Part shown: positions 36,630 through 50,383 of the stretch, in pieces
Position numbering within the stretch: the stretch's first letter is position 1
Layout of the letters: every line of letters begins with the position of its first letter
Assembly (NCBI GenBank): GCA_028554645.1
Contig: JAQOOI010000061.1
Span: 310,001 to 374,000 of the forward strand
Origin: Omphalotus guepiniiformis
Lineage: Eukaryota; Basidiomycota; Agaricomycetes; Agaricales; Omphalotaceae
Reading direction: 5' to 3'
Length of the DNA stretch: 64,000 nucleotides
Made by a program: the position numbers and the translations under genes
Notes under the pieces: generated by a model
The model's input: the letters and a program-made list of their open reading frames with translations, nothing else
Database searches by the model: none
Told to the model about the DNA's origin: nothing

Positions 36630-37280
36630 AAAATTTTGAGAGTCTCCCTCATTTTTCACAGGGACACTCGCAGATTTCTGTGTTTCAGGGACAAGCTTTG
36701 GTTCACCAGGAATAGGTTTAACCTTAATTCCTCTACCTCTGTCATATGTTCCCATTGTACACTTCATTCCACTGTTTGGATCTGTAATGGTGATCTCTTG
36801 TTCTCCAGTTTCAAAGTTTCTGACTACACTGCTTGTTAACACATCAAATGGTCTTCCCAAAAGAACATCATAAGGCACTTTATCTATTATGTGAATCTGC
36901 ATATAGATAGTTATTTCTCCAAAGGTAAATGGTACATTTCTTGCTAGTCCCCTAGTAGCCTGTAATTGACCATTTGCACTTTGCATATGGATCACAGTCT
37001 CTGGGTCCCATCTTAAACCAAGTCCAATAGCTACTCTTGTATCCATGGACACGATTTGAGAACCACTATCAACTACTGTCTCAACTTGTTGATCAGAGTG
37101 ATTAATCTTTGGGTAGATTGCCTTTAGACTGTCAGTCTGGCTGGCTACTATAATGATCTTGTTCCTCTCATCTGGAGGTACATCTTTCTGATACTGGTCC
37201 ACAACATCCTTGTGTACCACTGAGCCTTTCTTAAGGTCTTCTGTGTCTTCATCTAGGACAATAAACACATCTTCCCTTTC
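36609..37280 (-). pseudogene. Pol of element B, protease segment
   Basis: Resumes directly at the right-hand target-site copy of element C. It reads EREDVFIVLDEDTEDL, then the aspartic protease with VETVVDSGSQIVSM (active site DSGS) near 37085 and VPYDVLLGRPFDVLTS as the second-half motif. The frame runs to a false stop at 36609 because of the single-base loss at 36630-36633. Confidence 0.82.
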
Positions 37281-37567
37281 ATAGGTGTTAGGAACTTAGA
37301 TGAATTAGGGGCATGAATACAAGAGGATTGAACAAGTCAACAAAAGTGTAGCAAAAGTGATACCAGAAAATTTTCAAAATTCTGGATGTTATTAGACTAG
37401 TCATTTTAGATGACCTACCTATTGGACTAGTCATTCCAGATAATCCACTGCCTCACATTGCAACCTCATGTTCAAACTGCCTCATGTTTGGCCTTAAGGC
37501 AGCCACATTGTAGCCTCATGTCCAAATGGCCTCATGTTCAGCCTCAAGGCATGCCTCACTGCAACCT

Positions 37568-37639
37568 CATTGCATGCCTCATTGCATGCCTCATTGCATG
37601 CCTCATTGCATGCCTCATTGCATGCCTCATTGTATGCCT
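37568..37639 (+). repeat. 12-bp minisatellite in U3 of the C LTR
   Basis: Five units of CATTGCATGCCT and one variant, CATTGTATGCCT. The right LTR has four plus the variant (49713-49772). Each unit contains the palindrome GCATGC. The position just upstream of the TATA box suggests a promoter-proximal element. Confidence 0.85.
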
Positions 37640-37663
37640 CATGTTTAGCCTCATGGTTTGTAG

Positions 37664-37672
37664 TATATAAAG
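37664..37672 (+). promoter_or_regulatory. TATA box of element C
   Basis: TATATAAAG lies about 30 bp before 37695, the first base of the sequence that pairs with the priming site. The same box in the right LTR is near 49797-49805. Confidence 0.75.
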
Positions 37673-37769
37673 CCCCAGAAACTTAGTGTACAGTAGTCTA
37701 GTTATTTTCTTGTTAACCCCCATCTTGTAAATCTGTCTTGTGAATTCAAGTACTTTTTACTCTCTAAGT

Positions 37770-38070
37770 GTTGCTGAAGCATTACCAGTGACTGAACCTA
37801 CAATATCTGAAGCATTTCCAGATATTCTCTAAGACATCTGAAGCATTTCCAGTGTCTATTCCTAAGTATTGCTGAAGCATTTCCAGCAGTATTCTCTTTG
37901 ATTGTCTGAAGCATTTCCAGACTTTCTCCTTGAACAACTGAAGCATTTCCAGTTTTCAAACTACTCCTAGATTACTTGAAGCATTTCCAAGTATTCCAAC
38001 CTTCCTTGGTTACTGAAGCATTTCCAGTAATCAAAACATCCTCTTTTCACTTGAAGCTTTCCCAAGTGAA
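37770..38070 (+). ncRNA. Array of nine hairpins with a constant loop in the C leader
   Basis: Nine inverted repeats about 28-41 bp apart share the 9-nt loop AAGCATTTC (unit 1 AAGCATTAC, unit 9 AAGCTTTCC). Stem arms: 37770-37776/37786-37792; 37802-37809/37819-37826 (AATATCTG with CAGATATT); 37832-37840/37850-37857; 37867-37874/37884-37891; 37904-37908/37918-37922; 37930-37940/37950-37959; 37973-37978/37988-37993; 38006-38015/38025-38034; 38046-38053/38063-38070 (TTCACTTG with CAAGTGAA). Stems differ in sequence but stay paired, including CTG/CAG exchanged for TTG/CAA next to the loop. The array lies in the transcribed R/U5 leader and is repeated in the right LTR at about 49903-50203. Confidence 0.85.
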
Positions 38071-38251
38071 TCCTATTCTTCTAGTGCTACCTGATACATC
38101 ATTCTTCACATTTCCTCTTTCCTGTGATATAGACTATCACTTCAGTTTCTCCATTGTGTTCTTTGAGTAGATTCTCAATTAATACAACTTAGCCCCCAAC
38201 CCTCATATTGTGGATCAGAGTAACTAACCCTTACCTTCTGTTCCCTAACAT

Positions 38252-38263
38252 AATAACTAGACT
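38252..38263 (+). promoter_or_regulatory. Self-priming site of element C
   Basis: AATAACTAGACT, starting one base after the 5' LTR, is the exact reverse complement of AGTCTAGTTATT at 37695-37706, the predicted 5' end of the RNA. No TGG start for a tRNA primer is present. The layout is that of Tf1-type self-priming. Confidence 0.78.
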
Positions 38264-38283
38264 CCCACTAAGTTACAGTTGAG

Positions 38284-41200
38284 ATGTCTACTCAAACAAC
38301 CCACACCCAGACCAACCAACAACAGACCACTTCTCCTAGACACTATGTCCTCACCCCAGACAGCACCAATCTCAGAAGATCTGTCTCTGAAGGACCAGTT
38401 AACAGGCAATCCCAGAGTTTTACTCCATTTGAAACTCCAGGACAAACCCTAGGAAGTACACCACAACAAATCCCACCAGGAGTAGCAGTTAGAAGACCAA
38501 GGAGAAGAAGAGACAGAACTACAGGTCTCACCTTCCAAGAACTCACTCCTATTTCCCCAGTCAGACCTAGATCCACTCTTCAGACTGAGATACTGAGAGC
38601 TGAATTGTATGGAGAACAAGGCATGGCTGAACTAACACCTGGTCCCAACACCATTGATAATTTGCTGCAAGAACCATATCAAGATCAGTCTCAATTCCCC
38701 AGTCAAGCAGCCATCAATGTTTCAAGTTCTTCTAGTAATGGAGCTGCTGGTGATACAGGGAACATAGCAGATGATGAAGATGAGCATGCAGACATGCCTG
38801 CATTACAGGCTGCCAGTGATTCTGAATCTGACAATGATGAAGAGGATGAGGAGTATGAACCACCAACTATGCAACATCCCATTGCACACTCCACACCCAG
38901 AACTCAACAATGGCAAGAGGCTAGTATGGACACAGGTTTCCAAAGTTATAATGAGGGCTTAAGAGATGTGTTGGGAAGCATGTATTCCAATCCTCATGTC
39001 CCTACAGCAGCTGCTAGAAATGTACAAGGACATTCTACTTCACATGGTGCTCCAACATCCACACATAATACTATCCACTCTAACAGAAGTCAAAGACATA
39101 GTGTCAGAGAGAGTATACCTTCACACAGAGCTTCATCAGGATCCCATACCACCAATGACTATGAACAGGAGCGTAGTGTATCAGCTACTCAACTAGCAGG
39201 ATTGGCAATTTCAAGCAGAGCCTTTTTACTCAGCATTGGAGTAGAAGATGATTCTTGGAGAAATGATTATGGATGGATCCGTATGATGCGCAGGCTGGCT
39301 CAAACTAATCTATCTGACTTATCAGAGCCCATAGCACATGCTTTGCAATTCCCTCATAATGCAAGGGAACTCACAAATCTATATAACTTCTCACAAAGAC
39401 CCATGATGCTCAATCTTTTGAATATGCAAGAGCCATCTAGCAGAGTCTCATCTCCAAGGAGTAATACCCCTCACTCTGCCAGAACAACCTTGCTTTCAGA
39501 GGCAAGTGATCATCCACATTCAACATCTCCAAGATCCTACCAGCTATATCCTGAAATGGACATTTTCCAGTGGACTCTGAACTCTGCTAATGTGAATGGA
39601 AATTGGCAAGTGGTAGATGATAGGTCAGTCAGGAGCTCTCATACCAACCTACAAGGGTATACTAGAGTACCAACCCATACTCCAGTACAATCACCTCAAC
39701 ATGCAGTACATTGGCCTAGTACTGTTGGTAGAGTACAACAATTCATCAACACTACTCCTTCAACTGTGAGAAGTACAATACCCCAAGCAGTGCAAGGACG
39801 TATTGCAACTCCCTGGCACCCTAGTACTCAACCAATAATGGTATCCTCAGGGTCAGACTCCACCACTGTAGTAGGGATACCCAATGTTCCTTTCTACAGA
39901 AACACAGAGTACAATATCCCAGACCCTGTACCACCATATCCTGGAGAGCCCCCAGCACCTACTTATGAACAGATTCCCACTTCCAGAACATCCAATCCTT
40001 CCTCAAACAGAGCATCCAATCATATTGAAACTCATTCATCTAATCCTGTAGTTCAAGAACTTCCACAGGAAAACATTCAGAGTGTCAACTACATAGATGA
40101 TACAGCAGTTTTCATCCATGAATCACAAGAGGAAGATGTGGAAGTAAATGAACCTGAAACAGTTTTGAGACCCAACAGAGTACCTGGTTATAGAGATGAT
40201 GAGGTACCTCCAGAGAGTTCAGTACAGGAATCTAGTGGAGTACAGAGGAGAAACAGGACACAAACTTGGAGGGAAGAATTAGAATCAAGAATCCAAAGAG
40301 GTCAAACCAGAGTTGAGCCTCAACCAAATAATTCCCCCTTACATCCTCAAGATGAACCAACCAGAGCTCAGGCCCCAGTACAGCTAGGTCCTTCCAATCA
40401 GTCTCATTCAATGCAGATGCCTGCAGCTAGGAACAGAGTACCCTCTGGTATGGAAAGAGATGCCCCACCACATTTGGATGTTAGAAGAGAGGATCAAAAC
40501 ACTTCTAGGCAATACAGGCAAAACACAGCAGGACCTTCTAGAAATCATGAGGTAAGTCACTCACCAGGATCATCTAGGATTTCAGAATTAAGGAGAAACC
40601 AACAATATCCTTATACTCCCAACAAAGGTAAGACTCCCATAAGGAATGCTGGAGGACCCCCAGATGACCCCAATGGCCCTGGGCACTCTCACTATGATGA
40701 TTCTGATTCTGATTCTGATGATGAACACAATCAGTCATCTAGAGGGGAAGGACCAAGTCATTGGACAACACCAGGAGGACCAGGAGGACCAGGAGGACCC
40801 CAAGGACCAAATGGTCCCCCATCTGGAGATGAAAGTGATGATGACTACAATCATAGAAGAAATGGTAGAAATGGTAGAGATGGCAGAGATGGCAGAGATG
40901 GTAGAGATGGAAGAGATGGAAGAGATGGCCGCAATCAGGAAGATGCAGAAGAACGTCGACAAAGAGAAGAACTCACTCGTGCTCTCAATAGAGAAGCTAA
41001 GTTGGACATCAACAAACCCAAAGAGTTCTCTGGAGAAAGCCGTGCTGAATGGTCTACCTTTGTTGACAGCTGTGAGAACATGTTTGCTGCCAAACCCACC
41101 ATCTATGCCACTGAATCATCTCAAATTACATTTGCCGCATCATATTTCAATGGTCCAGCTTTGCGGTATTACAACAATCTCATGCGCAAACGGCGAAATG

Positions 41201-42075
41201 GCAATTTCATTGCAGCTTTGAACACATGGAATGAATTCTTAAAGATGTTCAGTAAGATGTTTGGCTTACATGATGAGACTTTATACTCTCAATCCAAACT
41301 GGATACTGTATATCAGAAGTTCAAAGAAGCCTTTGCTGATTTCCTTGTGCGCTTTGAGGATGTGGCAAATAAGACCAACTACAATGATCCAGCTTTACGG
41401 TTCCGATTGCTCCGACAAATCCGCTCTGATCTCAGAAATCGACTCACAAACAATGGGAAAATTCCTGAGTCTTATGATGAAGTTGTTGAAAGACTCCTGG
41501 AAATTGATACTGCTCGTGAAGCACTCAATGACATGGGTCTTGGAGACAACACTTATAGTCGCAACTGGAATAATCAACAAACAGACACTAATCAGCGTGT
41601 AGTTCAAACTCGTTTTGTGTCAAACAATACCTATCGACTTCGTAATGCTAACACTCCCAATGCAGTCAGTGGGAATGCTGCAGAAACAGGAGAAACACAA
41701 TCCCAATCAAACTTCCCACCCCGTATTTCACAAGAAGAATATGAACGGCGGATGAGAGAAAGGTTGTGTATGCGCTGTGGCAAACCAGGGCACTTTGGTA
41801 GAGAATGTAGGACTTATCCAATGCCAAACTCCAATTCAAATGCAAACCGCTATGGCAACAATACAGGGACTGGCAATGCTGTCAATGGTAGAGCAGTGTT
41901 TGTGGACAATGTTGAAGAAGAAAGAGATGGAACATATTTGGAAGTTGAAGGAGAGGATGGCATTATTCAGATAGAAGACACCAATTTCCAAGAGGGCGCC
42001 AATGGAGAGGAATATGAAGATGACAACAACTCGGGAAACTTGCAGGAGACTCAGGATGGCAGGAGTCACATTTGA
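38284..42075 (+). CDS. Gag of element C with a very long N-terminal extension
   Basis: 1263 residues, about three times a normal Ty3 Gag. Residues 1 to about 890 are Ser/Thr/Gln/Pro-rich and probably disordered, with acidic patches (DDEDEHADMP, DSESDNDEEDEEYE). They end in a Gly/Pro block (GGPGGPGGPQGPNGPP) and RDG repeats (40861-40932). The retrotransposon Gag core follows, from about residue 895 (DINKPKEFSGESRAEWSTF) through LRLLRQIRSDLRNRL-like helices. One zinc knuckle, CMRCGKPGHFGREC, is near residue 1161. An acidic tail ends RSHI. The start is the first ATG after the priming site. The frame is intact. Pol follows by -1 frameshift at 42033-42039. Confidence 0.92.
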   Translation: MSTQTTHTQTNQQQTTSPRHYVLTPDSTNLRRSVSEGPVNRQSQSFTPFETPGQTLGSTPQQIPPGVAVRRPRRRRDRTTGLTFQELTPISPVRPRSTLQTEILRAELYGEQGMAELTPGPNTIDNLLQEPYQDQSQFPSQAAINVSSSSSNGAAGDTGNIADDEDEHADMPALQAASDSESDNDEEDEEYEPPTMQHPIAHSTPRTQQWQEASMDTGFQSYNEGLRDVLGSMYSNPHVPTAAARNVQGHSTSHGAPTSTHNTIHSNRSQRHSVRESIPSHRASSGSHTTNDYEQERSVSATQLAGLAISSRAFLLSIGVEDDSWRNDYGWIRMMRRLAQTNLSDLSEPIAHALQFPHNARELTNLYNFSQRPMMLNLLNMQEPSSRVSSPRSNTPHSARTTLLSEASDHPHSTSPRSYQLYPEMDIFQWTLNSANVNGNWQVVDDRSVRSSHTNLQGYTRVPTHTPVQSPQHAVHWPSTVGRVQQFINTTPSTVRSTIPQAVQGRIATPWHPSTQPIMVSSGSDSTTVVGIPNVPFYRNTEYNIPDPVPPYPGEPPAPTYEQIPTSRTSNPSSNRASNHIETHSSNPVVQELPQENIQSVNYIDDTAVFIHESQEEDVEVNEPETVLRPNRVPGYRDDEVPPESSVQESSGVQRRNRTQTWREELESRIQRGQTRVEPQPNNSPLHPQDEPTRAQAPVQLGPSNQSHSMQMPAARNRVPSGMERDAPPHLDVRREDQNTSRQYRQNTAGPSRNHEVSHSPGSSRISELRRNQQYPYTPNKGKTPIRNAGGPPDDPNGPGHSHYDDSDSDSDDEHNQSSRGEGPSHWTTPGGPGGPGGPQGPNGPPSGDESDDDYNHRRNGRNGRDGRDGRDGRDGRDGRDGRNQEDAEERRQREELTRALNREAKLDINKPKEFSGESRAEWSTFVDSCENMFAAKPTIYATESSQITFAASYFNGPALRYYNNLMRKRRNGNFIAALNTWNEFLKMFSKMFGLHDETLYSQSKLDTVYQKFKEAFADFLVRFEDVANKTNYNDPALRFRLLRQIRSDLRNRLTNNGKIPESYDEVVERLLEIDTAREALNDMGLGDNTYSRNWNNQQTDTNQRVVQTRFVSNNTYRLRNANTPNAVSGNAAETGETQSQSNFPPRISQEEYERRMRERLCMRCGKPGHFGRECRTYPMPNSNSNANRYGNNTGTGNAVNGRAVFVDNVEEERDGTYLEVEGEDGIIQIEDTNFQEGANGEEYEDDNNSGNLQETQDGRSHI
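42033..42067 (+). promoter_or_regulatory. Programmed -1 frameshift signal of element C
   Basis: The heptamer GGGAAAC (42033-42039) lies in the gag frame as G-GGA-AAC. An 8-nt spacer follows, then the stem GACTC (42048-42052)/GAGTC (42063-42067). The pol frame is closed by TGA at 42021-42023 and open from 42024, so the shift must occur within this short window before the gag stop at 42073-42075. Confidence 0.82.
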
Positions 42076-45000
42076 GTCCAGAAGAAACTGATTCCATATA
42101 TTTAAATGGTGCAGTGGTTGAACCAGTCACCATAACTTCTAGATCAGAACAATCCTTCATCATTTCTGCAACAATTTTCAATTCCAACTCTGTTAACTAT
42201 CACTGCCTGCTGGATACAGGTGCAACTAGAGAATTCATTGATATCAAACTAGCAAGTCTTTATCCTGAAAGACTCAAGCCCCTACCTCTTCCCATTCCAC
42301 TAAGACTCTTTGATGGACAATTCACCTCTGCAGGGAAAATCACACACAAATTCTTTGCACCAATCACATTCACTGATGGAACAACTCATCATATAAACTT
42401 CTTGGTTACTCAGCTTCATCCTGAAACTCCCATAGTACTGGGACTACCTTGGTTTAGGAAGTACAATCCTCAAGTAAACTGGACTGACTTGAAGTTCTCT
42501 TTCAATAACAGTGTTCAGCTTATGGCTGCAGAAGTATATGATCTCACACAGATCACACACTATATTGTCAGACCTTCCATAAACAAGAAGAATGGAGTAA
42601 CTATAGAAGATGAGGAAGAGATATATGAATTTCAGAAGTCAGGATTAGGATTGGAAGACCCAATCTTGATACACATAGATGAGATGAATGAATACCTCCA
42701 AGAGCAGGAAACAATTCAACAGTCCATTCCCAAATCTAAACCTCCTACCTCTGATCCTCAAATGGAAGATAACACCCCACATATATGCTTGCTAGGTGCA
42801 GCCTCCTTTGCTCAACTAGTGATGGAAGGATGTGAAGCATCAATTCTATACATAATGCCAAGCATTGAGGAAGCAGAAGTAGATGCAGGAATGGCCTCTA
42901 CCAGTAATGAGAATTCAGAAGTTCCAGATAAACCAAAATCCAGCAAACTCTCTGAGCAAGAACTACTGGATAAATTTGTACCCAAACAGTATCATCAATA
43001 TGCCAAAGCTTTCTCAGCCACAGAAGCTAAAGGCCTGCCACAACATAGACCTTATGATATCAGGATTGATACTGAGGATGACAAACTACCACCCTATGGG
43101 AAGTTATACAACCTGTCAGAAAAAGAATTGAAGGTTCTCAAGGATTACATTGATGAAATGATGGAAAAGGGATTTATCAGGCCTTCTAGTTCACCAATTG
43201 GAGCTCCAGTCTTGTTTGCCAAGAAAAAAGATGGAAGTCTCAGACTGTGTGTGGACTATCGTGCACTAAATAGGCTTACAAGAAAGAACCGCTATCCCCT
43301 TCCACTCATTGGTAATCTCATTGACCAGTTGAGAAGTGCTAAAATCTACACCAAACTGGACCTCAGAGCAGGGTACAACAATATAAGGGTTGCTGAAGGA
43401 CATGAATGGAAAACCTCATTTAGAACCAGATATGGTGCTTATGAGTACTTGGTCATGCCCTTTGGTCTAACCAATGCTCCTTCTGTATTCCAGCACTTCA
43501 TCAATGACATATTCCGTGACATGGTAGATGTGTTTGTCATAGTCTATCTTGATGACATCTTGATTTTCTCAGAAAATGAGCAACAACATTTTGAACATGT
43601 CTCTAAAGTGTTGCAAAGACTGGAAGAACATGATCTGCATATCAAACCAGAGAAATGTGAATTCCATACCAACTCTGTTGAATATCTAGGTGTCATTGTT
43701 TCTCCAGAAGGTGTCACTATGGATCCCAAGAAGATAGAAGTTATCCAGAAATGGGAGACACCAACAAATGTGAAGGAGCTACAATCATTTTTGGGGTTTG
43801 CAAATTTTTATAGAAGATTCATTGACAACTATTCTGGAATAGTCAAACCTCTCACAAGGCTTACCAGTAAAGACAAACCTTGGATTTGGACAGAAGAATG
43901 CACCACAGTCTTTGAACTCTTGAAGAAAGCATTTCAAGAAGCTCCTATACTCCAGCACTTTGATCCAGAATTACCTATCATTGTGGAAGCTGATGCATCT
44001 GACTATGCTATAGCATCCATTATATCCCAGCAGAACAAGGAATCTGGAGAAATACACCCTATTGCATTCTATGCAAGGAGCATGACTAGTGCAGAGTTGA
44101 ACTATGATATCTATGATAAGGAGCTATTAGCTATTGTAGAATCATTCAAACAGTGGCGTGCATATTTGGAAGGGTCCAAGTACAAGATTGAAGTCTTCAC
44201 AGATCACAATAACCTTCAATGGTTCACTACCACCAAAACTCTGAGTAGAAGACAAGCAAGATGGTCAGAGTTTCTATCAGGATTTGACTTTGTGATCAAC
44301 TACAGGCCAGGAAAATTAGGAGGAAAACCAGATGCTCTTACAAGGAGAAATGATGTCTACCCCAAGAAGTCAGCACAAGCAGCAGTGAACAGTGAGAATC
44401 ACAGGGTACTGCTAAATCCTGAAAGGTTATCAACTTCTCTTATTATGAATGATGAAGCAGACCTGGCACACATCCATAGTGTAGAGAAGGATAGATACTG
44501 GAAAGAGCACAAGGCTATAGCAGAATCAGAAGAGCCTGGACCATTCAAGATGGAAAATGGATTACTACTCAGAGATGGATTGGTCTATGTACCAAACAAT
44601 GCTTCTCTTAGACTTAGAATCCTTCAAGTACATCATGACCATAAGCTAATGGGCCATCCTGGAATGCGGAAAACAGCACAGATGATTCACCGGACATACT
44701 TTTGGCCAGGATTGCAAAAGGATGTAAAGAAGTATGTTAGAAGTTGTCATGAATGTCTGAGGGCAAAGAGTAGTCGCCGGAAACCATTTGGTCTGCTCAA
44801 ACCACTACCCATTGGTGAAAGACCATGGAGTTCTATATCAGTGGACCATATTGGAGAACTGCCAGAATCAAATGGATTTAATGCTATTATGGTTGTAGTT
44901 TGCCGGTTGACCAAACAAGCAGTATTCATAGCATGTCGTACTGATGACAATGCTTCACAACTGGCTAAACTCTTCATTAAGCACATATTTTCCAAGCATG

Positions 45001-45947
45001 GTCTTCCAGTGGATATAGTTTCTGATAGAGGATCTACCTTTGTGTCAACCTTTTGGCATTCACTTTGTGATGCACTAGATGTCAAAACCAATTATTCCAC
45101 TGGTTATCATCCACAAACAGATGGACAGACTGAAAGAACAAACCAGACTTTGGAGCAGTATCTCAGACTGTTTGTTAACTATGACCAGGATGATTGGGAA
45201 GAATGGCTTCCACTAGCAGAATTCACTTATAACAACTCTCCAAGTGATGCTACTGGACTAACACCCTTCTTTGCAAATAAAGGATTCCATCCTAGATTAA
45301 CCATTTCACTCAAAGGGTTGCCAAATCATCAGGCACAGTTAAAGGCTCAAGAACTTAAAGATGTTCATGAGTACCTAAAGAGTGAAATCAAAAGGAGTAA
45401 TGAATCAGCAAAGAAGTACACCAATCCTAAAAGAAGGAAGACACCTAGTGACTGGAAGGAAGGAATGTTGGTATGGTTAAATGCAAAAAACATCAAGACT
45501 AAAAGGCCTACCAAGAAGTTGGATCATAAGCAACTGGGACCATTCAAGATAGTTAAGAAGATTTCTGATCATGCATATCGATTGGCATTACCACGCAGCA
45601 TGCAAACTCTTCATAATACATTCCATGTGGACTTGTTGACTGCTAATCCACCGGAACATTTTCCCCAACGTCGACAACCACCTCCTCCCCCAGTTGAAAT
45701 TGATGATGAAGAACACTATGAAGTGGAACAAATTTTGGATAACCGTAGAAGATGGGGAAGAATGGAATACCTAGTCCGCTGGAAAGGTTATGATCCAGAA
45801 CATGATTCTTGGGAACCAATTAGAAATGTGGTTGGATCTCAAGAATACATTGAAGATTTTCACCAAAAGCATCCCAACAAAATAGGACTTCATGATGGTG
45901 AACTGGAGAGAGCAGTAGAACAGGAAAGAAGTCAAACTCAGAAATAA
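42034..45947 (+). CDS. Pol of element C: protease, RT, RNase H, integrase, chromodomain
   Basis: Read in the -1 frame from the GGGAAAC site; the frame has no ATG near its start. Positions are counted from 42072. Protease: CLLDTGATREFID near residue 48 and IVLGLPWFRKYNP near 120. RT: FIRPSSSPIGAPVLFAKKKD and LRLCVDYRALN, with catalytic YLDDILIF near 489. RNase H: VEADASDYAI near 640, IYDKELLAI and FTDHNNL. Integrase: HHDHKLMGHPG and CHECLRAK zinc region near 854, then a D,D-35-E core (VDHIGELP near 922; VSDRGSTF near 983; GQTERTNQTLEQYL near 1019). A chromodomain near 1215-1265 (YEVEQILDNRR, YLVRWKGYDPEHDSWEP) would bind methylated histone tails and direct integration. No break was seen. Confidence 0.95.
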
Positions 45948-46050
45948 CCTCAACAAATCATTCAAGCAATATGGCATAGAGAGTTAATCATCTACTTGTC
46001 ATGTACAGAATCAGGTTATTTCTTGGCATACATTGGTTACAACTATCTCC
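45948..46050. other. Short gap between convergent pol and antisense gene of C
   Basis: About 100 bp separates the pol stop from the stop of the antisense gene. Overlapping convergent transcripts are likely. Confidence 0.5.
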
Positions 46051-47202
46051 CTAATTATCTAACTCTGGATACTCCAATTCCACTTCACCATCTCCCTCAT
46101 CATCAACAGTCAGGTCAATAATAGCAGGAGACAAACCTGTAACTGTTTCATCATCATCCAAGTCAATAACCACTGGATTGACATGAGATTCAGCTACAGT
46201 CCAGGCACTGGGATAAGTAATGCGAGAAATGTTAGAGAGGTGAGCAAGAGCATCAGCAATACCAAGACGTTGGAAATGCAGAGACAGGAGTTCATCCCGA
46301 GTGAGACGAGCATGTGAAATAGTCCCCATCATCTTGTCAAAGCTCTCAACAAGCCAAGATTCCAGTGTCTCCACCCTCATCTGCCCCTCTGACAACTGGT
46401 GTTGAGCTTGAAAAACACCCCGCACAATGGTCTCTAAGTCCCGACGAAGCGCATCGAAGAAGGGGGTAGGGTCCGCACGAAGTCCCCTATAAGCCATATC
46501 AGCCAGAATTCTCTGAAGCACCGTTCCCTGTTCCAACTCCCGACGAAGGCGTACAATCTCCGCATCACGCTCCTTAAGTTGACCATTACGACGAGATTGA
46601 GCAGCTACCACGCAGTAGTACGATTTCTTCATACGATTCAATCGCACTACCTGACCTTGTAGGGTTGCGGCTAATTGACCCATGCGAGAACCAGTGTTGC
46701 GAGCTACAGTCAATTCCTCCTGAGTACGAGTAAGATCACTAGGGGAAGATATCAGCAACAGCAGCAAAAAAAGAACATGGGAGGATAGGCAACATACCTT
46801 TCAAGTGACTTCTTTTCATCCTCTAATGTTCGTTTATCATCCATAAGGAGCTTCGCTCGAGCGCGAAGGCTAGCAACGAGCCTAAAAAACTATCAATACA
46901 ACACCACGAAATGGTGATTTACACTTACCTAGCCCCTAAAGTTTCGCCTCGAAAAACTGTCGGCTCATTGGTTTTCAATTGTTCCTTGTATTCCGCTTCA
47001 AGTTCACTAATACGGCTAAGGTAATTGGTCAGCTCACTTGGACAAATGGAGTTCAAAGAAGTACCCACATGTCTACCAGTTCTCGAAGACTTGGAGCTGG
47101 CACCACTGGAATGTTCATCCAAGTGAGAGAGCCACCACCAGCAATGCGAGGAACGAGATCAACTAATACAGAGGACTGAGTAGCAGAGGTTTCGAAATTC
47201 AT
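46051..47202 (-). CDS. Antisense four-exon coiled-coil protein carried by element C
   Basis: Predicted exons 47202-47069, 47015-46929, 46881-46798 and 46738-46051 sum to 993 nt (330 residues plus stop) with consistent phases; introns are 47-59 nt, GT..AG. The start MNFETSATQSSVLVDLVPRI follows a TATA box at 47273-47280. The middle is strongly helical and coiled-coil-like (ISELEAEYKEQLK; RLNRMKKSYYCVVAAQSRR; LKERDAEIVRLRRELEQG). The C-terminus is acidic, with two motifs of the SUMO-interaction type, VVIDLDDDE and AIIDLTVDDEGD. No family is recognised. The frame is intact, unlike the antisense gene of B. Because it is antisense, its introns would not be removed from the element's genomic RNA, so they survive reverse transcription. 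Confidence 0.72.
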
Positions 47203-47272
47203 GGCAGGAATAAGGCGAAAGACGGATGAATTGTCAAGAGGACAATGGGATGAATACATGATGAAAAGCTAG

Positions 47273-47280
47273 ATTTTATA
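47273..47280 (-). promoter_or_regulatory. TATA box of the antisense gene of element C
   Basis: TATAAAAT on the minus strand, about 70 bp before the chosen start at 47202. An in-frame ATG at 47259 lies too close to this box to be in the mRNA, which favours 47202. Confidence 0.55.
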
Positions 47281-47283
47281 GTA

Positions 47284-49144
47284 ACGAGTTATCATTAACA
47301 TCCTCCGTCCCGGAATTCCACTGAACAAGAACACGAGGATGCATGGGAAACATATCTCAAGTAGAACATGGAAGAACTAGTTCAAATTAAAATTCTAACG
47401 AGTGGCGTGTAGACGATGTACACGAGGAACGTACACTCCTACTGCGGACCCCGTTACAGTACCCTTCAACGACATCATCCTGCTCATCCAACCCCTGCAA
47501 CATCCTCTTCGCTCACAGACACTCTGTCGTACTTCCGAGTTGTTCGTTGGGGTCCACGAAACCTGCATTGGATATCGTACGAGAACTGACGATATGCAGA
47601 ACACCAATAGACGTGCATGAATAACGATTTCGAAGCAAAAGGTTACGACAACGCACCACATGAATAGAATACTTCATGATTGAGGAAGGAGAACTCGTGG
47701 AGGTATCGAAATGGAATCCAACAGCCGCATGATCCTTTATTGGAATGTTCTGTACCAGACAAGGATCAAGATAAACTAACCTACCAATTCGATTCAAAGA
47801 TTCAGTCCGGTAGTCCGTGAAATGGGAAATTGCACTCACTAGAACATCTCGCTGGTCGTCCGTTAACCCGTCAACCCTCTATTTTCTCAGCAGTCTAAGT
47901 CCCACCCATTGCCTTGCGCCCCATTCACAAGTCCCTCTTTGTATTCCTATCGATTATTGTAGCCATTGGAGGCGCCGTTGTGGTGGTGTACCCATGTCGA
48001 AGGTCGTAGATTGTGGTGAAAACAGGAGACAGAATGTTCGAGAACCTTTGCGCAATTGTCGCACTTGGAGTTCTAGCCAAAGGATGAAAAATGATCTAGA
48101 GCAGAGAGCCACGCACCGTACTTCCAGTAAGTCCACCAGTCGTAACGCAAACCCAATAAACAACAACCGCTTTGTTGCCCACCAAACCACCCTTGAAGTC
48201 CTCGACCCTTCTCTGCAGACGTATACCGGAGGTTCGACTTCCCATGGTAACAGAGCATAGACAGATAGAATTACGGCGTTACGAAAGACCCAGCCGTCGT
48301 AACGTTCGCGCAGTTGCATGAGCAAACTAATACTGAGTATAAAGACGACGAGTGTGGGAATGGATGGATCGTCACGGTCTTCTGAGGATAAACGGCCGAT
48401 GCGTCTTGGGATATCTGAGTCGAAGTCAACGAAGATTCGGATCTAGAATGATCATTAGCCATGCAATAGACAAAAAGAGAGGTGGTGACGCACCTCGTCA
48501 TCGCTAACAAGGACACAACACCAATCTCTTTCCCAACCGAAGCATCACTACCCTGAAGACCAGCCTCAATGATGGGCCAGACCTCGTCCAAGAGAGAGTT
48601 ATGAGTGCACTACAGCTCTTCACAGCGATACCAAAAGCGGGCATGAATCCGCAACGTTGAGCAGGGTCTGTCGTTCATCCCTGGTCCGTGTAGCGTTGCC
48701 TTCGTCCCTGGTTCATATTGGAGTATGCAATTGCGGAAAATATAAAGCATTGGACGTACCAATAAAAACCGTCCTTTTTAAATTCCCTCATGAATGCTCC
48801 TCAGTTGTTAGATCAACCTCAGTGTCAGCGCCGGAAGCAGTATGCAGGCGCTTCATTCTCTGTGTATGCATGGTGAGAGGTAGCCAACAACACATCCATC
48901 ATCACATTTCGTGGTTCTTTGCCAACAACATCACCACCTTTCCTTTCCACACCAACTTCATCAATGGTGGCTGGGAGGAGAACGTCGCGAAAGTTGGAGT
49001 CGTAAAGTTCCGGAATATGCGGCAAACAGACTGTTGAGACATAGCGAGAGCAGAGAAAGTGGAAGCCGTCATACAAAGATGATAACGGGGAACATACAGT
49101 ACATACTCCAAGAGGATCGGCAAACGTGGCCGTACGCGCGTTCA
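47284..49144. other. Non-retroviral segment inside element C, possible captured gene remnant
   Basis: This 1.9-kb stretch is richer in GC and CpG than the rest of C. The minus strand has several protein-like pieces, such as LLDEVWPIIEAGLQGSDASVGKEIG split across frames near 48500-48600, with a plausible GTGCGT..TCTAG intron near 48445-48494. Others are 48325-47954 and 47839-47513. They do not join into one clean product by eye and no family is recognised. It may be a captured host fragment in decay or a second antisense gene with unresolved introns. Confidence 0.4.
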
Positions 49145-49162
49145 ATATATCACGTGATATAT
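49145..49162. repeat. 18-bp palindrome with CACGTG core inside GCGCGTT/AACGCGC arms
   Basis: The sequence is perfectly symmetrical around TATATCACGTGATATA. Outside it, GCGCGTT (49136-49142) and AACGCGC (49174-49180) form a second inverted pair. The core is an E-box type site. It could be the promoter of the minus-strand segment to its left. Confidence 0.6.
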
Positions 49163-49416
49163 ATTAGCAAATCAACGCGCTCGCATGCTCTTGCTCAGGC
49201 CTACCATGGAAAGGATGCTGGGCTTTGATCTCAAGAAAATTAATGGACCACTCATAGTACATGGGATTAGGAATCTACATCTCTATTGATTATCATCTAT
49301 GTGGACAAACATTACTTTCATAGCAAGACTATATTTCAATTTCAGTATTGAAGATGTCTTGAAATTGTACCACTGGTGCCATCAAACATGCTATGCCGTC
49401 GAGGGCTCCGGCTGGT

Positions 49417-49425
49417 GAAGGGGGG
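49417..49425 (+). promoter_or_regulatory. Polypurine tract of element C
   Basis: GAAGGGGGG ends five bases before the right LTR, the expected plus-strand primer. The preceding 49181-49416 holds no feature. Confidence 0.7.
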
Positions 49426-49430
49426 TGTAC

Positions 49431-50383
49431 TGTTAGGAACTTAGATGAATTAGGGGCATGAATACAAGAGGATTGAACAAGTCAACAAAAGTGTAGCAAA
49501 AGTGATACCAGAAAATTTTCAAAATTCTGGATGTTATTAGACTAGTCATTTTAGATGACCTACCTATTGGACTAGTCATTCCAGATAATCCACTGCCTCA
49601 CATTGCAACCTCATGTTCAAACTGCCTCATGTTTGGCCTTAAGGCAGCCACATTGTAGCCTCATGTCCAAATGGCCTCATGTTCAGCCTCAAGGCATGCC
49701 TCACTGCAACCTCATTGCATGCCTCATTGCATGCCTCATTGCATGCCTCATTGCATGCCTCATTGTATGCCTCATGTTTAGCCTCATGGTTTGTAGTATA
49801 TAAAGCCCCAGAAACTTAGTGTACAGTAGTCTAGTTATTTTCTTGTTAACCCCCATCTTGTAAATCTGTCTTGTGAATTCAAGTACTTTTTACTCTCTAA
49901 GTGTTGCTGAAGCATTACCAGTGACTGAACCTACAATATCTGAAGCATTTCCAGATATTCTCTAAGACATCTGAAGCATTTCCAGTGTCTATTCCTAAGT
50001 ATTGCTGAAGCATTTCCAGCAGTATTCTCTTTGATTGTCTGAAGCATTTCCAGACTTTCTCCTTGAACAACTGAAGCATTTCCAGTTTTCAAACTACTCC
50101 TAGATTACTTGAAGCATTTCCAAGTATTCCAACCTTCCTTGGTTACTGAAGCATTTCCAGTAATCAAAACATCCTCTTTTCACTTGAAGCTTTCCCAAGT
50201 GAATCCTATTCTTCTAGTGCTACCTGATACATCATTCTTCACATTTCCTCTTTCCTGTGATATAGACTATCACTTCAGTTTCTCCATTGTGTTCTTTGAG
50301 TAGATTCTCAATTAATACAACTTAGCCCCCAACCCTCATATTGTGGATCAGAGTAACTAACCCTTACCTTCTGTTCCCTAACA
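49431..50383 (+). repeat. Right (3') LTR of element C
   Basis: 953 bp, identical by eye to the left LTR apart from one fewer 12-bp minisatellite unit. It contains the second copy of the hairpin array (about 49903-50203). It is followed by the target-site copy ATAGG. Confidence 0.95.

What the first reader, a model, noticed from the sequence alone, without database searches (positions are those of the whole stretch)
37770..38070. Nine hairpins with a constant loop and compensated stems in the leader of element C
Nine consecutive inverted repeats share the loop AAGCATTTC with little change, while their stems differ in sequence and length yet remain paired (for example AATATCTG/CAGATATT, TATTGCTG/CAGCAGTA with one G-U, TTCACTTG/CAAGTGAA). 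Simple tandem duplication would keep stem and loop equally similar. Here the loop is constant and both arms change together, which points to selection for an RNA (or cruciform) fold. The array lies between the predicted RNA 5' end and the priming site and is present in both LTRs. It could bring the 5' end close to the priming site, serve as a packaging signal with repeated loops bound by Gag, or bind a host factor. I know of no described retrotransposon leader like it.
Basis: partly seen in the sequence, partly recalled or inferred. Interest (0 to 1): 0.88.

Follow-up and report, generated by a model that had tools for sequence, protein, structure and literature searches.

The report
Repeated RNA hairpins in retrotransposon leader
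A mobile element in a fungal genome starts its RNA with nine small hairpins that share one loop but have different, still matching stems, which points to a repeated docking site for a protein, probably the element's own coat protein.

Summary
Nine hairpins (37770-38070) lie in the leader of a young LTR element (LTRs 37286-38250 and 49431-50383, TSD ATAGG), a chromodomain Ty3/Gypsy element whose PBS (38252-38263) is complementary to its predicted RNA 5' end (37695-37706), as in Tf1-type self-priming. A sister subfamily in the same genome carries 9-11. Across 16 hairpins, both-side pair changes number 30 against 11.3 in shuffles and 8-9 in slid controls. Swapping arms between hairpins destroys folding (0 of 20,000). 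Between one copy of each subfamily, linkers differ at 30%, outer stems 10%, loops 4%, inner stems 0%. G-U pairs exceed A-C mismatches, and 14 of 14 leaders that reach gag lack any ATG; both point to the sense RNA, not a cruciform. One member each of four other pol families here shows similar 5'-end/PBS complementarity with spans of 79-263 nt and no such hairpin, so self-priming does not seem to need the array. Best reading: a multivalent loop-recognition platform, most likely a packaging site for the element's CCHC-containing Gag (not shown). Ten open-access full-text searches showed no equivalent. Other fungi could not be tested.

The parts
37286..38250 (+). 5' LTR of element C (TGTTAG...CTAACA)
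   Evidence: TSD ATAGG on both sides read
49431..50383 (+). 3' LTR, identical but for one 12-bp unit; carries the same array
37664..37671 (+). TATA box, 31 nt upstream of the predicted RNA 5' end
   Evidence: sequence; spacing
37695..37706 (+). predicted RNA 5' end and self-primer AGTCTAGTTATT
37711..37715 (+). UGUUA that pairs with UAACA at the LTR 3' end (38246-38250)
   Evidence: mean pair probability 0.71 in the window copy, 0.37 in L021, not predicted in the two B copies folded
37770..37792 (+). hairpin 1, loop 37777-37785 (AAGCATTAC), 7 bp with 2 G-U
37802..37826 (+). hairpin 2, loop 37810-37818, 8 bp
37832..37857 (+). hairpin 3, loop 37841-37849, 8 bp with a bulged T
37865..37893 (+). 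hairpin 4, loop 37875-37883, 10 bp including G-U
37900..37926 (+). hairpin 5, loop 37909-37917, 5 bp, 2x2 internal loop, 2 bp
37930..37959 (+). hairpin 6, loop 37941-37949, 10 bp with a bulge
37970..37996 (+). hairpin 7, loop 37979-37987, 6 bp, mismatch, 2 bp
38006..38034 (+). hairpin 8, loop 38016-38024, 10 bp with one G-U
38046..38070 (+). hairpin 9, loop 38054-38062 (AAGCTTTCC), 8 bp
38155..38171 (+). LTR arm complementary to the start of gag (38287-38303), 17 nt, 88%
38252..38263 (+). primer-binding site AATAACTAGACT, complementary to 37695-37706
38284..42075 (+). ORF1: long N-terminal part, Gag domain (residues 950-1042), CCHC motif (residues 1162-1176, below Pfam's cut-off)
42072..45947 (+). 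ORF2: protease-like, RT, RNase H, integrase, SH3_Tf2-1, chromodomain

Best explanation
The array is a sense-strand RNA structure kept by selection in the untranslated leader of a self-priming, Tf1/sushi-like chromodomain retrotransposon. Each hairpin shows nearly the same nine-base loop (AAGCWUUNC in intact hairpins) on a stem whose sequence may differ so long as it pairs. The most likely job is multivalent display: 8 to 11 copies of one binding site on the genomic RNA, recognised by loop sequence, most likely by the element's own CCHC-containing Gag as a packaging site. Different stems stop the repeats from pairing with each other. SHOWN by computation: the hairpins, their covariation, the loop and inner-stem conservation, the sense-strand bias, the ATG-free leader, the 5'-end/PBS complementarity. 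INFERRED: the RNA 5' end, self-priming itself, that a protein reads the loop, that it is Gag, that it serves packaging. My confidence is about 0.93 that this is a selected sense-RNA hairpin array, and about 0.45 for the full statement with Gag.
For: Covariation over 16 hairpins: 30 both-side changes vs 11.3+-2.5 in shuffles and 8-9 in slid controls; 85.9% of cells paired vs 65.2%. Arm swaps: summed MFE -67.3 vs mean -28.3 (A), -94.6 vs -36.6 (B), 0 of 20,000 each; the swapped means also show that arms of different hairpins pair poorly with each other. A-B difference (one copy each): linkers 23/76, outer stems 9/89, loops 3/81, inner stems 0/53 (Fisher p 6.6e-6 loop vs linker, 0.0014 outer stem vs linker). 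18 arm substitutions keep folding better than the same changes placed at random (0 of 2000 and p 0.0005). G-U 37 vs A-C 11. In the array 7.5 of 9.4 expected unpaired G lie in the constant loops (A), 10.1 of 11.2 (B). ORF1 carries a CCHC motif. 31 of 36 distinct fetched loci keep 8 or more hairpins with a recognisable loop. That packaging signals of retroviruses usually lie between the RNA 5' end and gag is recalled knowledge.
Against: No binding, packaging or transcript data. The CCHC hit is below Pfam's cut-off (18.5 vs 20.8 bits). The 8th loop base varies (T, A, C, G seen). On the minus strand the summed MFE of the window array is lower (-73.6 vs -67.3; -82.2 vs -68.9 for the stretch), although its contrast with controls is weaker there (z -4.9 vs -5.7; -2.8 vs -4.1). 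In B the plus strand is the more stable (-94.6 vs -80.4). Four other families lack the array, so packaging in this genome does not generally need it. Relatedness among hairpins inflates shuffle-based counts; A and B are the only two well-separated subfamilies.
Confidence: 0.45

Rival explanations
1. Compaction scaffold for self-priming: the hairpins shorten an unusually long leader so that the RNA 5' end can meet the PBS; the loop is secondary.
For: 5' end:PBS pairing is predicted at mean P 0.97 in four array-bearing leaders of 565-641 nt. The array lies between the two partners. The array-bearing leader is the longest of the five families looked at.
Against: Compaction does not explain a loop conserved more than the outer stems. 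One member each of four other families shows 5'-end/PBS complementarity over 79-263 nt without such hairpins. The energy model used does not count the entropy that compaction would save. With more downstream sequence the duplex weakens (P 0.82) or is replaced in the best fold.
Confidence: 0.2
2. A host RNA-binding protein or translation control: the loops bind a host factor that governs scanning, stability or export of the element's RNA.
For: The leader to gag has no ATG in 14 of 14 distinct loci that hold both ends (7.3 and 8.2 expected by dinucleotide shuffles), so ribosomes probably scan through it. The hairpins are weak (-5.9 to -10.5 kcal/mol), which scanning could melt. An LTR arm pairs with the gag start.
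Against: No host factor is indicated; no Rfam family matches (one hit, 20.6 bits against a gathering score of 60).
Confidence: 0.18
3. DNA-level function: repeated binding sites for a transcription factor, or cruciforms.
For: A constant 15-mer core, CTGAAGCATTTCCAG, with 97 + 86 exact copies in the genome; location just downstream of the TATA box.
Against: Outer arms need not pair for a double-stranded binding site, yet they covary. G-U over A-C and sense-only ATG depletion are not expected from a DNA function.
Confidence: 0.07
4. Mutational origin: tandem duplication followed by palindrome-templated correction (template switching), with no selection.
For: Units are repeated, and B seems to contain a duplicated block of two to three hairpins.
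Against: Correction would give Watson-Crick arms, but G-U pairs persist and exceed A-C mismatches. Linkers differ three times as much as outer stems between A and B.
Confidence: 0.05

Closest known systems
Tf1 / Tf2 / Tj1 / Tosmo elements (Tf1/sushi chromoviruses, self-primed)
   Same: Chromodomain-type Ty3/Gypsy pol, PBS beside the LTR complementary to the RNA 5' end, further pairing next to the PBS (compared with passages of PMC10085805 and PMC4600332).
   Different: The passages describe a three-duplex 'pretzel' leader and mention no hairpin array with a constant loop. Element C has a 569-nt primer-to-PBS span, two ORFs and a 3.5-kb region after pol.
Retroviral packaging leaders with several stem-loops (HIV-1, MMTV and the like)
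   Same: Structured leader upstream of gag with loops thought to be read by Gag (recalled; only titles and abstract starts seen).
   Different: Those stem-loops are few and differ in loop sequence (recalled); here nearly one loop is repeated 8-11 times.
Phage coat-protein hairpins and laboratory MS2/PP7 hairpin arrays
   Same: Works-like comparison only, recalled: one loop repeated on stems that can differ, giving many binding sites per RNA.
   Different: Different organism, loop and stem; no homology claimed or tested.
Mitochondrial double-hairpin elements of fungi
   Same: Repeated hairpins in fungal DNA (passages of PMC10085805).
   Different: Described there as GC-rich, in mitochondrial genomes, mostly intergenic; not inside a nuclear LTR.

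Membership tests
Self-primed Tf1/sushi chromoviruses | LTRs with TG...CA ends and a target-site duplication | tested here: met
   LTRs TGTTAG...CTAACA, ATAGG on both sides
Self-primed Tf1/sushi chromoviruses | Ty3/Gypsy pol order with a chromodomain after integrase | tested here: met
   RT, RNase H, H2C2, SH3_Tf2-1, Chromo; rve slightly under its cut-off (30 vs 32.6 bits), protease under its cut-off (20.5 vs 24.3)
Self-primed Tf1/sushi chromoviruses | PBS complementary to the RNA 5' end | tested here: met
   12 nt complementary; also in subfamily B with a different upstream LTR part. The 5' end is predicted from the TATA box, not measured
Self-primed Tf1/sushi chromoviruses | Three-duplex 'pretzel' leader | tested here: inconclusive
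   self-primer:PBS and UGUUA:UAACA predicted in the window copy; the LTR:gag-start duplex would be a pseudoknot and in a nested fold competes with the first
Self-primed Tf1/sushi chromoviruses | RNase H cleavage of the leader to make the primer | not testable with these tools
   needs biochemistry
Self-primed Tf1/sushi chromoviruses | Position of the RT in a tree with Tf1, sushi and other chromoviruses | not tested
   no tree was built
Gag packaging signal | Conserved structured RNA in the leader | tested here: met
   (structure by computation only)
Gag packaging signal | Bound by Gag and needed for packaging | not testable with these tools
   no binding or packaging data; only a CCHC motif in ORF1
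Known RNA family (Rfam 15) | Match at the gathering score | tested here: not met
   on 37200-38400: one hit at E up to 1, 20.6 bits against 60
DNA cruciform / binding-site array | Strand symmetry of tolerated mismatches | tested here: not met
   G-U 37, A-C 11 (gap-aware); the ungapped count gave 32 and 29

The most novel reading that the evidence does not exclude
A natural multivalent RNA tag: a retrotransposon has amplified one protein-binding hairpin to 8-11 copies in its leader, holding the loop constant and keeping the stems mutually different so that the repeats fold independently and resist mispairing and loss during reverse transcription. This would be the natural counterpart of laboratory hairpin arrays, and a packaging logic that I did not find described for LTR elements.
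Probability: 0.35. Interest if true: 0.82.

Novelty: new variant of a known kind. Interest (0 to 1): 0.66.

Why it matters
The passages I read on Tf1/sushi elements describe how they prime, not how their RNA is chosen for packaging. A repeated, loop-constant hairpin array offers a directly testable candidate, with sister subfamilies and array-free relatives in the same genome as natural controls. If the loop is read by Gag, it would show a multivalent packaging strategy; if by a host protein, a new point of host control.

Tried and rejected
Loop pairing with the rest of the element: the 9-base complement GAAATGCTT does not occur on the sense strand of element C; GGAAATGC occurs once (46272) and AATGCTTC twice (44598, 44949); no case made. 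Rfam: nothing at the gathering score. Loop as a tetraloop with a bulged C: rejected because the loop's 8th base, which would pair, is the most variable. Relatives outside this genome: a two-loop pattern in viral contigs and in prokaryote genomes gave one stretch each; the hairpin model scores them weakly (16.4 bits twice in L082, loop core only; 18.5 bits once in L083; 28-40 bits for the window's own), so I take them for chance. A pol alignment in viral contigs found no relative; plasmid records gave none. A first fetch for a 62%-related element hit flanking host sequence, not its leader. Ungapped mismatch counts (G-U 32, A-C 29) show no strand bias; bulged stems fall out of register there, and the gap-aware count does show it. 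Both are reported. and held two loci twice (L032 = L046, L033 = L045); one search repeats them without the doubles. Hairpins were found through their loop, so loop conservation must not be read from that set; one search does not have this bias for B. In one search the pattern also picked up two stray matches outside arrays; one is still. In one search the '11 v 1' tally was typed by hand and is not used here. The minus-strand loci were not turned; one search repeats it turned.

Full report
WHAT IS THERE. The window is part of an unnamed 42.5-Mb genome. Named pol relatives of high identity are from mushrooms such as Lentinula edodes (61%) and Termitomyces (58%) (best 120 of 7986 listed), so the host is probably a basidiomycete; this was not tested further. 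Element C runs from 37286 to 50383, with LTRs of 965 and 953 bp that differ only by one 12-bp unit, and the direct repeat ATAGG on both sides. ORF1 carries a Gag domain and a CCHC motif; ORF2 carries protease-like, RT, RNase H, integrase, SH3_Tf2-1 and chromodomain matches. It is a young Ty3/Gypsy chromovirus.

SELF-PRIMING GEOMETRY. A TATA box lies 31 nt upstream of AGTCTAGTTATT (37695-37706), which is complementary to AATAACTAGACT (38252-38263) just after the 5' LTR. The fold of 37695-38263 closes on this duplex, with mean pair probability 0.97. The sister subfamily B has a different upstream LTR part but keeps the same 5' end and PBS (L029). This is the arrangement described for Tf1 and Tj1 (passages of PMC10085805 and PMC4600332). 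I looked at one member each of four other pol families in this genome (L078, L079, L080, L081). In each I found, partly by eye, a TATA-like motif followed by a stretch complementary to one that seems to lie just after an LTR end; the spans are 263, 177, 79 and 102 nt. Their LTR ends were not confirmed by a second LTR. None of the four stretches (2.0-2.9 kb each) holds the loop motif or a match to the hairpin model at E up to 10.

THE ARRAY. Nine hairpins, 37770-38070, all inside the leader. The loop is AAGCATTTC in seven. Identity between hairpins is 0.93 in the loop, 0.87 in the inner three pairs and 0.31 in stem positions 4-8. The leader gave 45 matching stretches in the genome, a lower bound by the tool's own word. 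I read 36 distinct loci (L009-L046 less two doubles); two loci can be the two LTRs of one element. 31 of 36 hold 8 or more hairpins with a recognisable loop; the other five (L032, L040, L041, L043, L044; 3-6 hairpins) are shortened, split or rearranged. Subfamily A (95-100% identical to the window) has 8-9 by the pattern used, subfamily B (85-87%) 9-11. In some copies a loop has changed (for example the third of L021) or a loop has been deleted (L031), and the hairpin then escapes the pattern.

TESTS OF SELECTION. (1) Covariation: 16 hairpins from one A and one B copy (9 of 9 A; 7 of 11 B, leaving out B3, B5, B6 and B10 as near-repeats of others in the set) give 85.9% paired cells against 65.2% shuffled, and 30 both-side changes against 11.3+-2.5; 0 of 500 shuffles reach either; slid controls 8-9. 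One measure did not stand out: pairs with any both-side change, 6 against 5.2 (204 of 500 shuffles). (2) Arm swaps: z -5.7 (A) and -6.8 (B), 0 of 20,000; the minus strand also gives z -4.9 and -6.0, so this test shows pairing but not the strand. (3) A-B difference by class (L009 against L029): linkers 23/76, 5' flank 15/73, 3' flank 20/192, outer stem 9/89, loop 3/81, inner stem 0/53 (p values). The 3' flank differs as little as the outer stems, so the outer-stem figure alone is not decisive; the contrasts with the linkers and of the loop and inner stem are. (4) The 18 arm substitutions between A and B keep the fold better than chance placement (0 of 2000; p 0.0005 in the other direction). Several are G-U changes or bulge shifts, not paired changes.

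WHICH STRAND. In a gap-aware count over 67 distinct hairpins from 36 loci, G-U pairs number 37 and A-C mismatches 11; restricted to the 24 hairpins seen in 3 or more loci, 16 and 2. The ungapped count showed 32 against 29, no bias. Hairpins A1, B2, B5 and B7 fall to about -3 kcal/mol on the minus strand but hold -6.2 to -8.4 on the plus strand; on the other side, the window array as a whole has the lower energy on the minus strand, with a weaker z. The leader has no ATG on the sense strand from 5' end to gag in 14 of 14 distinct loci that hold both ends, with 7.3 (A) and 8.2 (B) expected and 2 and 1 of 5000 dinucleotide shuffles at zero. Of 25 distinct loci with the 5' end and an LTR end, 23 are ATG-free to that point. 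On the antisense strand the window leader holds 17 ATG. This fits a scanned 5' UTR and argues for a real transcript start near 37695.

WHAT IT DOES. A constant loop on variable stems is the pattern of a site read by a protein through its loop. In the array nearly all exposed G are the loop G: 7.5 of 9.4 in A, 10.1 of 11.2 in B. CCHC knuckles often bind exposed G (recalled), and ORF1 has such a motif. Repetition gives many sites per RNA, and different stems keep the hairpins from pairing with each other, as the poor energies of swapped arms show. I therefore favour a multivalent Gag-binding, packaging-type signal, at 0.45. Compaction for self-priming, a host factor, a DNA function and mutational artefact follow, in that order.

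A SECOND STRUCTURE. LTR bases 38155-38171 are complementary to 38287-38303, right after the gag ATG. In a nested fold of 37695-38320 this duplex replaces the self-primer duplex, while a fold that ends 40 nt after the PBS keeps the self-primer duplex (mean P 0.82). As a pseudoknot both could coexist, as in the Tf1 'pretzel'; or they alternate, as a translation/packaging switch. Not decided here.

LITERATURE. Ten full-text searches were read as listings; passages were read in PMC4600332, PMC3601003, PMC4974528 (one passage, in its reference list), PMC2864245, PMC10085805 and PMC7264820. None of what I saw describes a constant-loop hairpin array in an LTR leader. Two of the original Tf1 leader papers, looked up by id, are not held, so absence is only for what I could see.

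Noticed in passing
window 46051-46767 (minus strand), within 45948-49430: A 238-aa antisense ORF lies in a 3.5-kb stretch between pol and the 3' LTR. Thirteen long matches (60-100% identity) occur in the genome, 11 of 13 without internal stops. They fall at 62-63% in the B copies, whose RT is 95% identical, and at 62-64% in two A copies (C59:42510, C69:253659) on contigs where the RT nearby is 100% identical, which suggests fast change or exchange of this part. No Pfam family at its cut-off. Plant elements with antisense ORFs in this place are known (passages of PMC7264820).
   Followed up: partly
window 38155-38171 with 38287-38303: LTR sequence complementary to the first codons of gag; possible third Tf1-type duplex or a switch that hides the gag start.
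   Followed up: partly
window 38284-42075: ORF1 has about 900 residues, largely of low-complexity appearance, ahead of the Gag domain.
   Followed up: no
G000:C43:106743-132354: Three B-type leaders at about 12.5-kb spacing with two pol matches between them, as if neighbouring elements share LTRs.
   Followed up: no
L041 (G000:C75:783900-785700): Two LTR-like stretches in opposite orientation form a large palindrome with degenerate hairpins.
   Followed up: no
L078, L079, L080, L081: One member each of four other pol families in this genome also appears self-primed, with spans of 263, 177, 79 and 102 nt and 0, 0, 0 and 1 ATG between self-primer and PBS.
   Followed up: partly
window 37454-37655: The upstream LTR part holds a 12-bp GCCTCATTGCAT repeat that differs by one unit between the two LTRs; the B copy L029 has GACTCAT-type repeats instead.
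   Followed up: no
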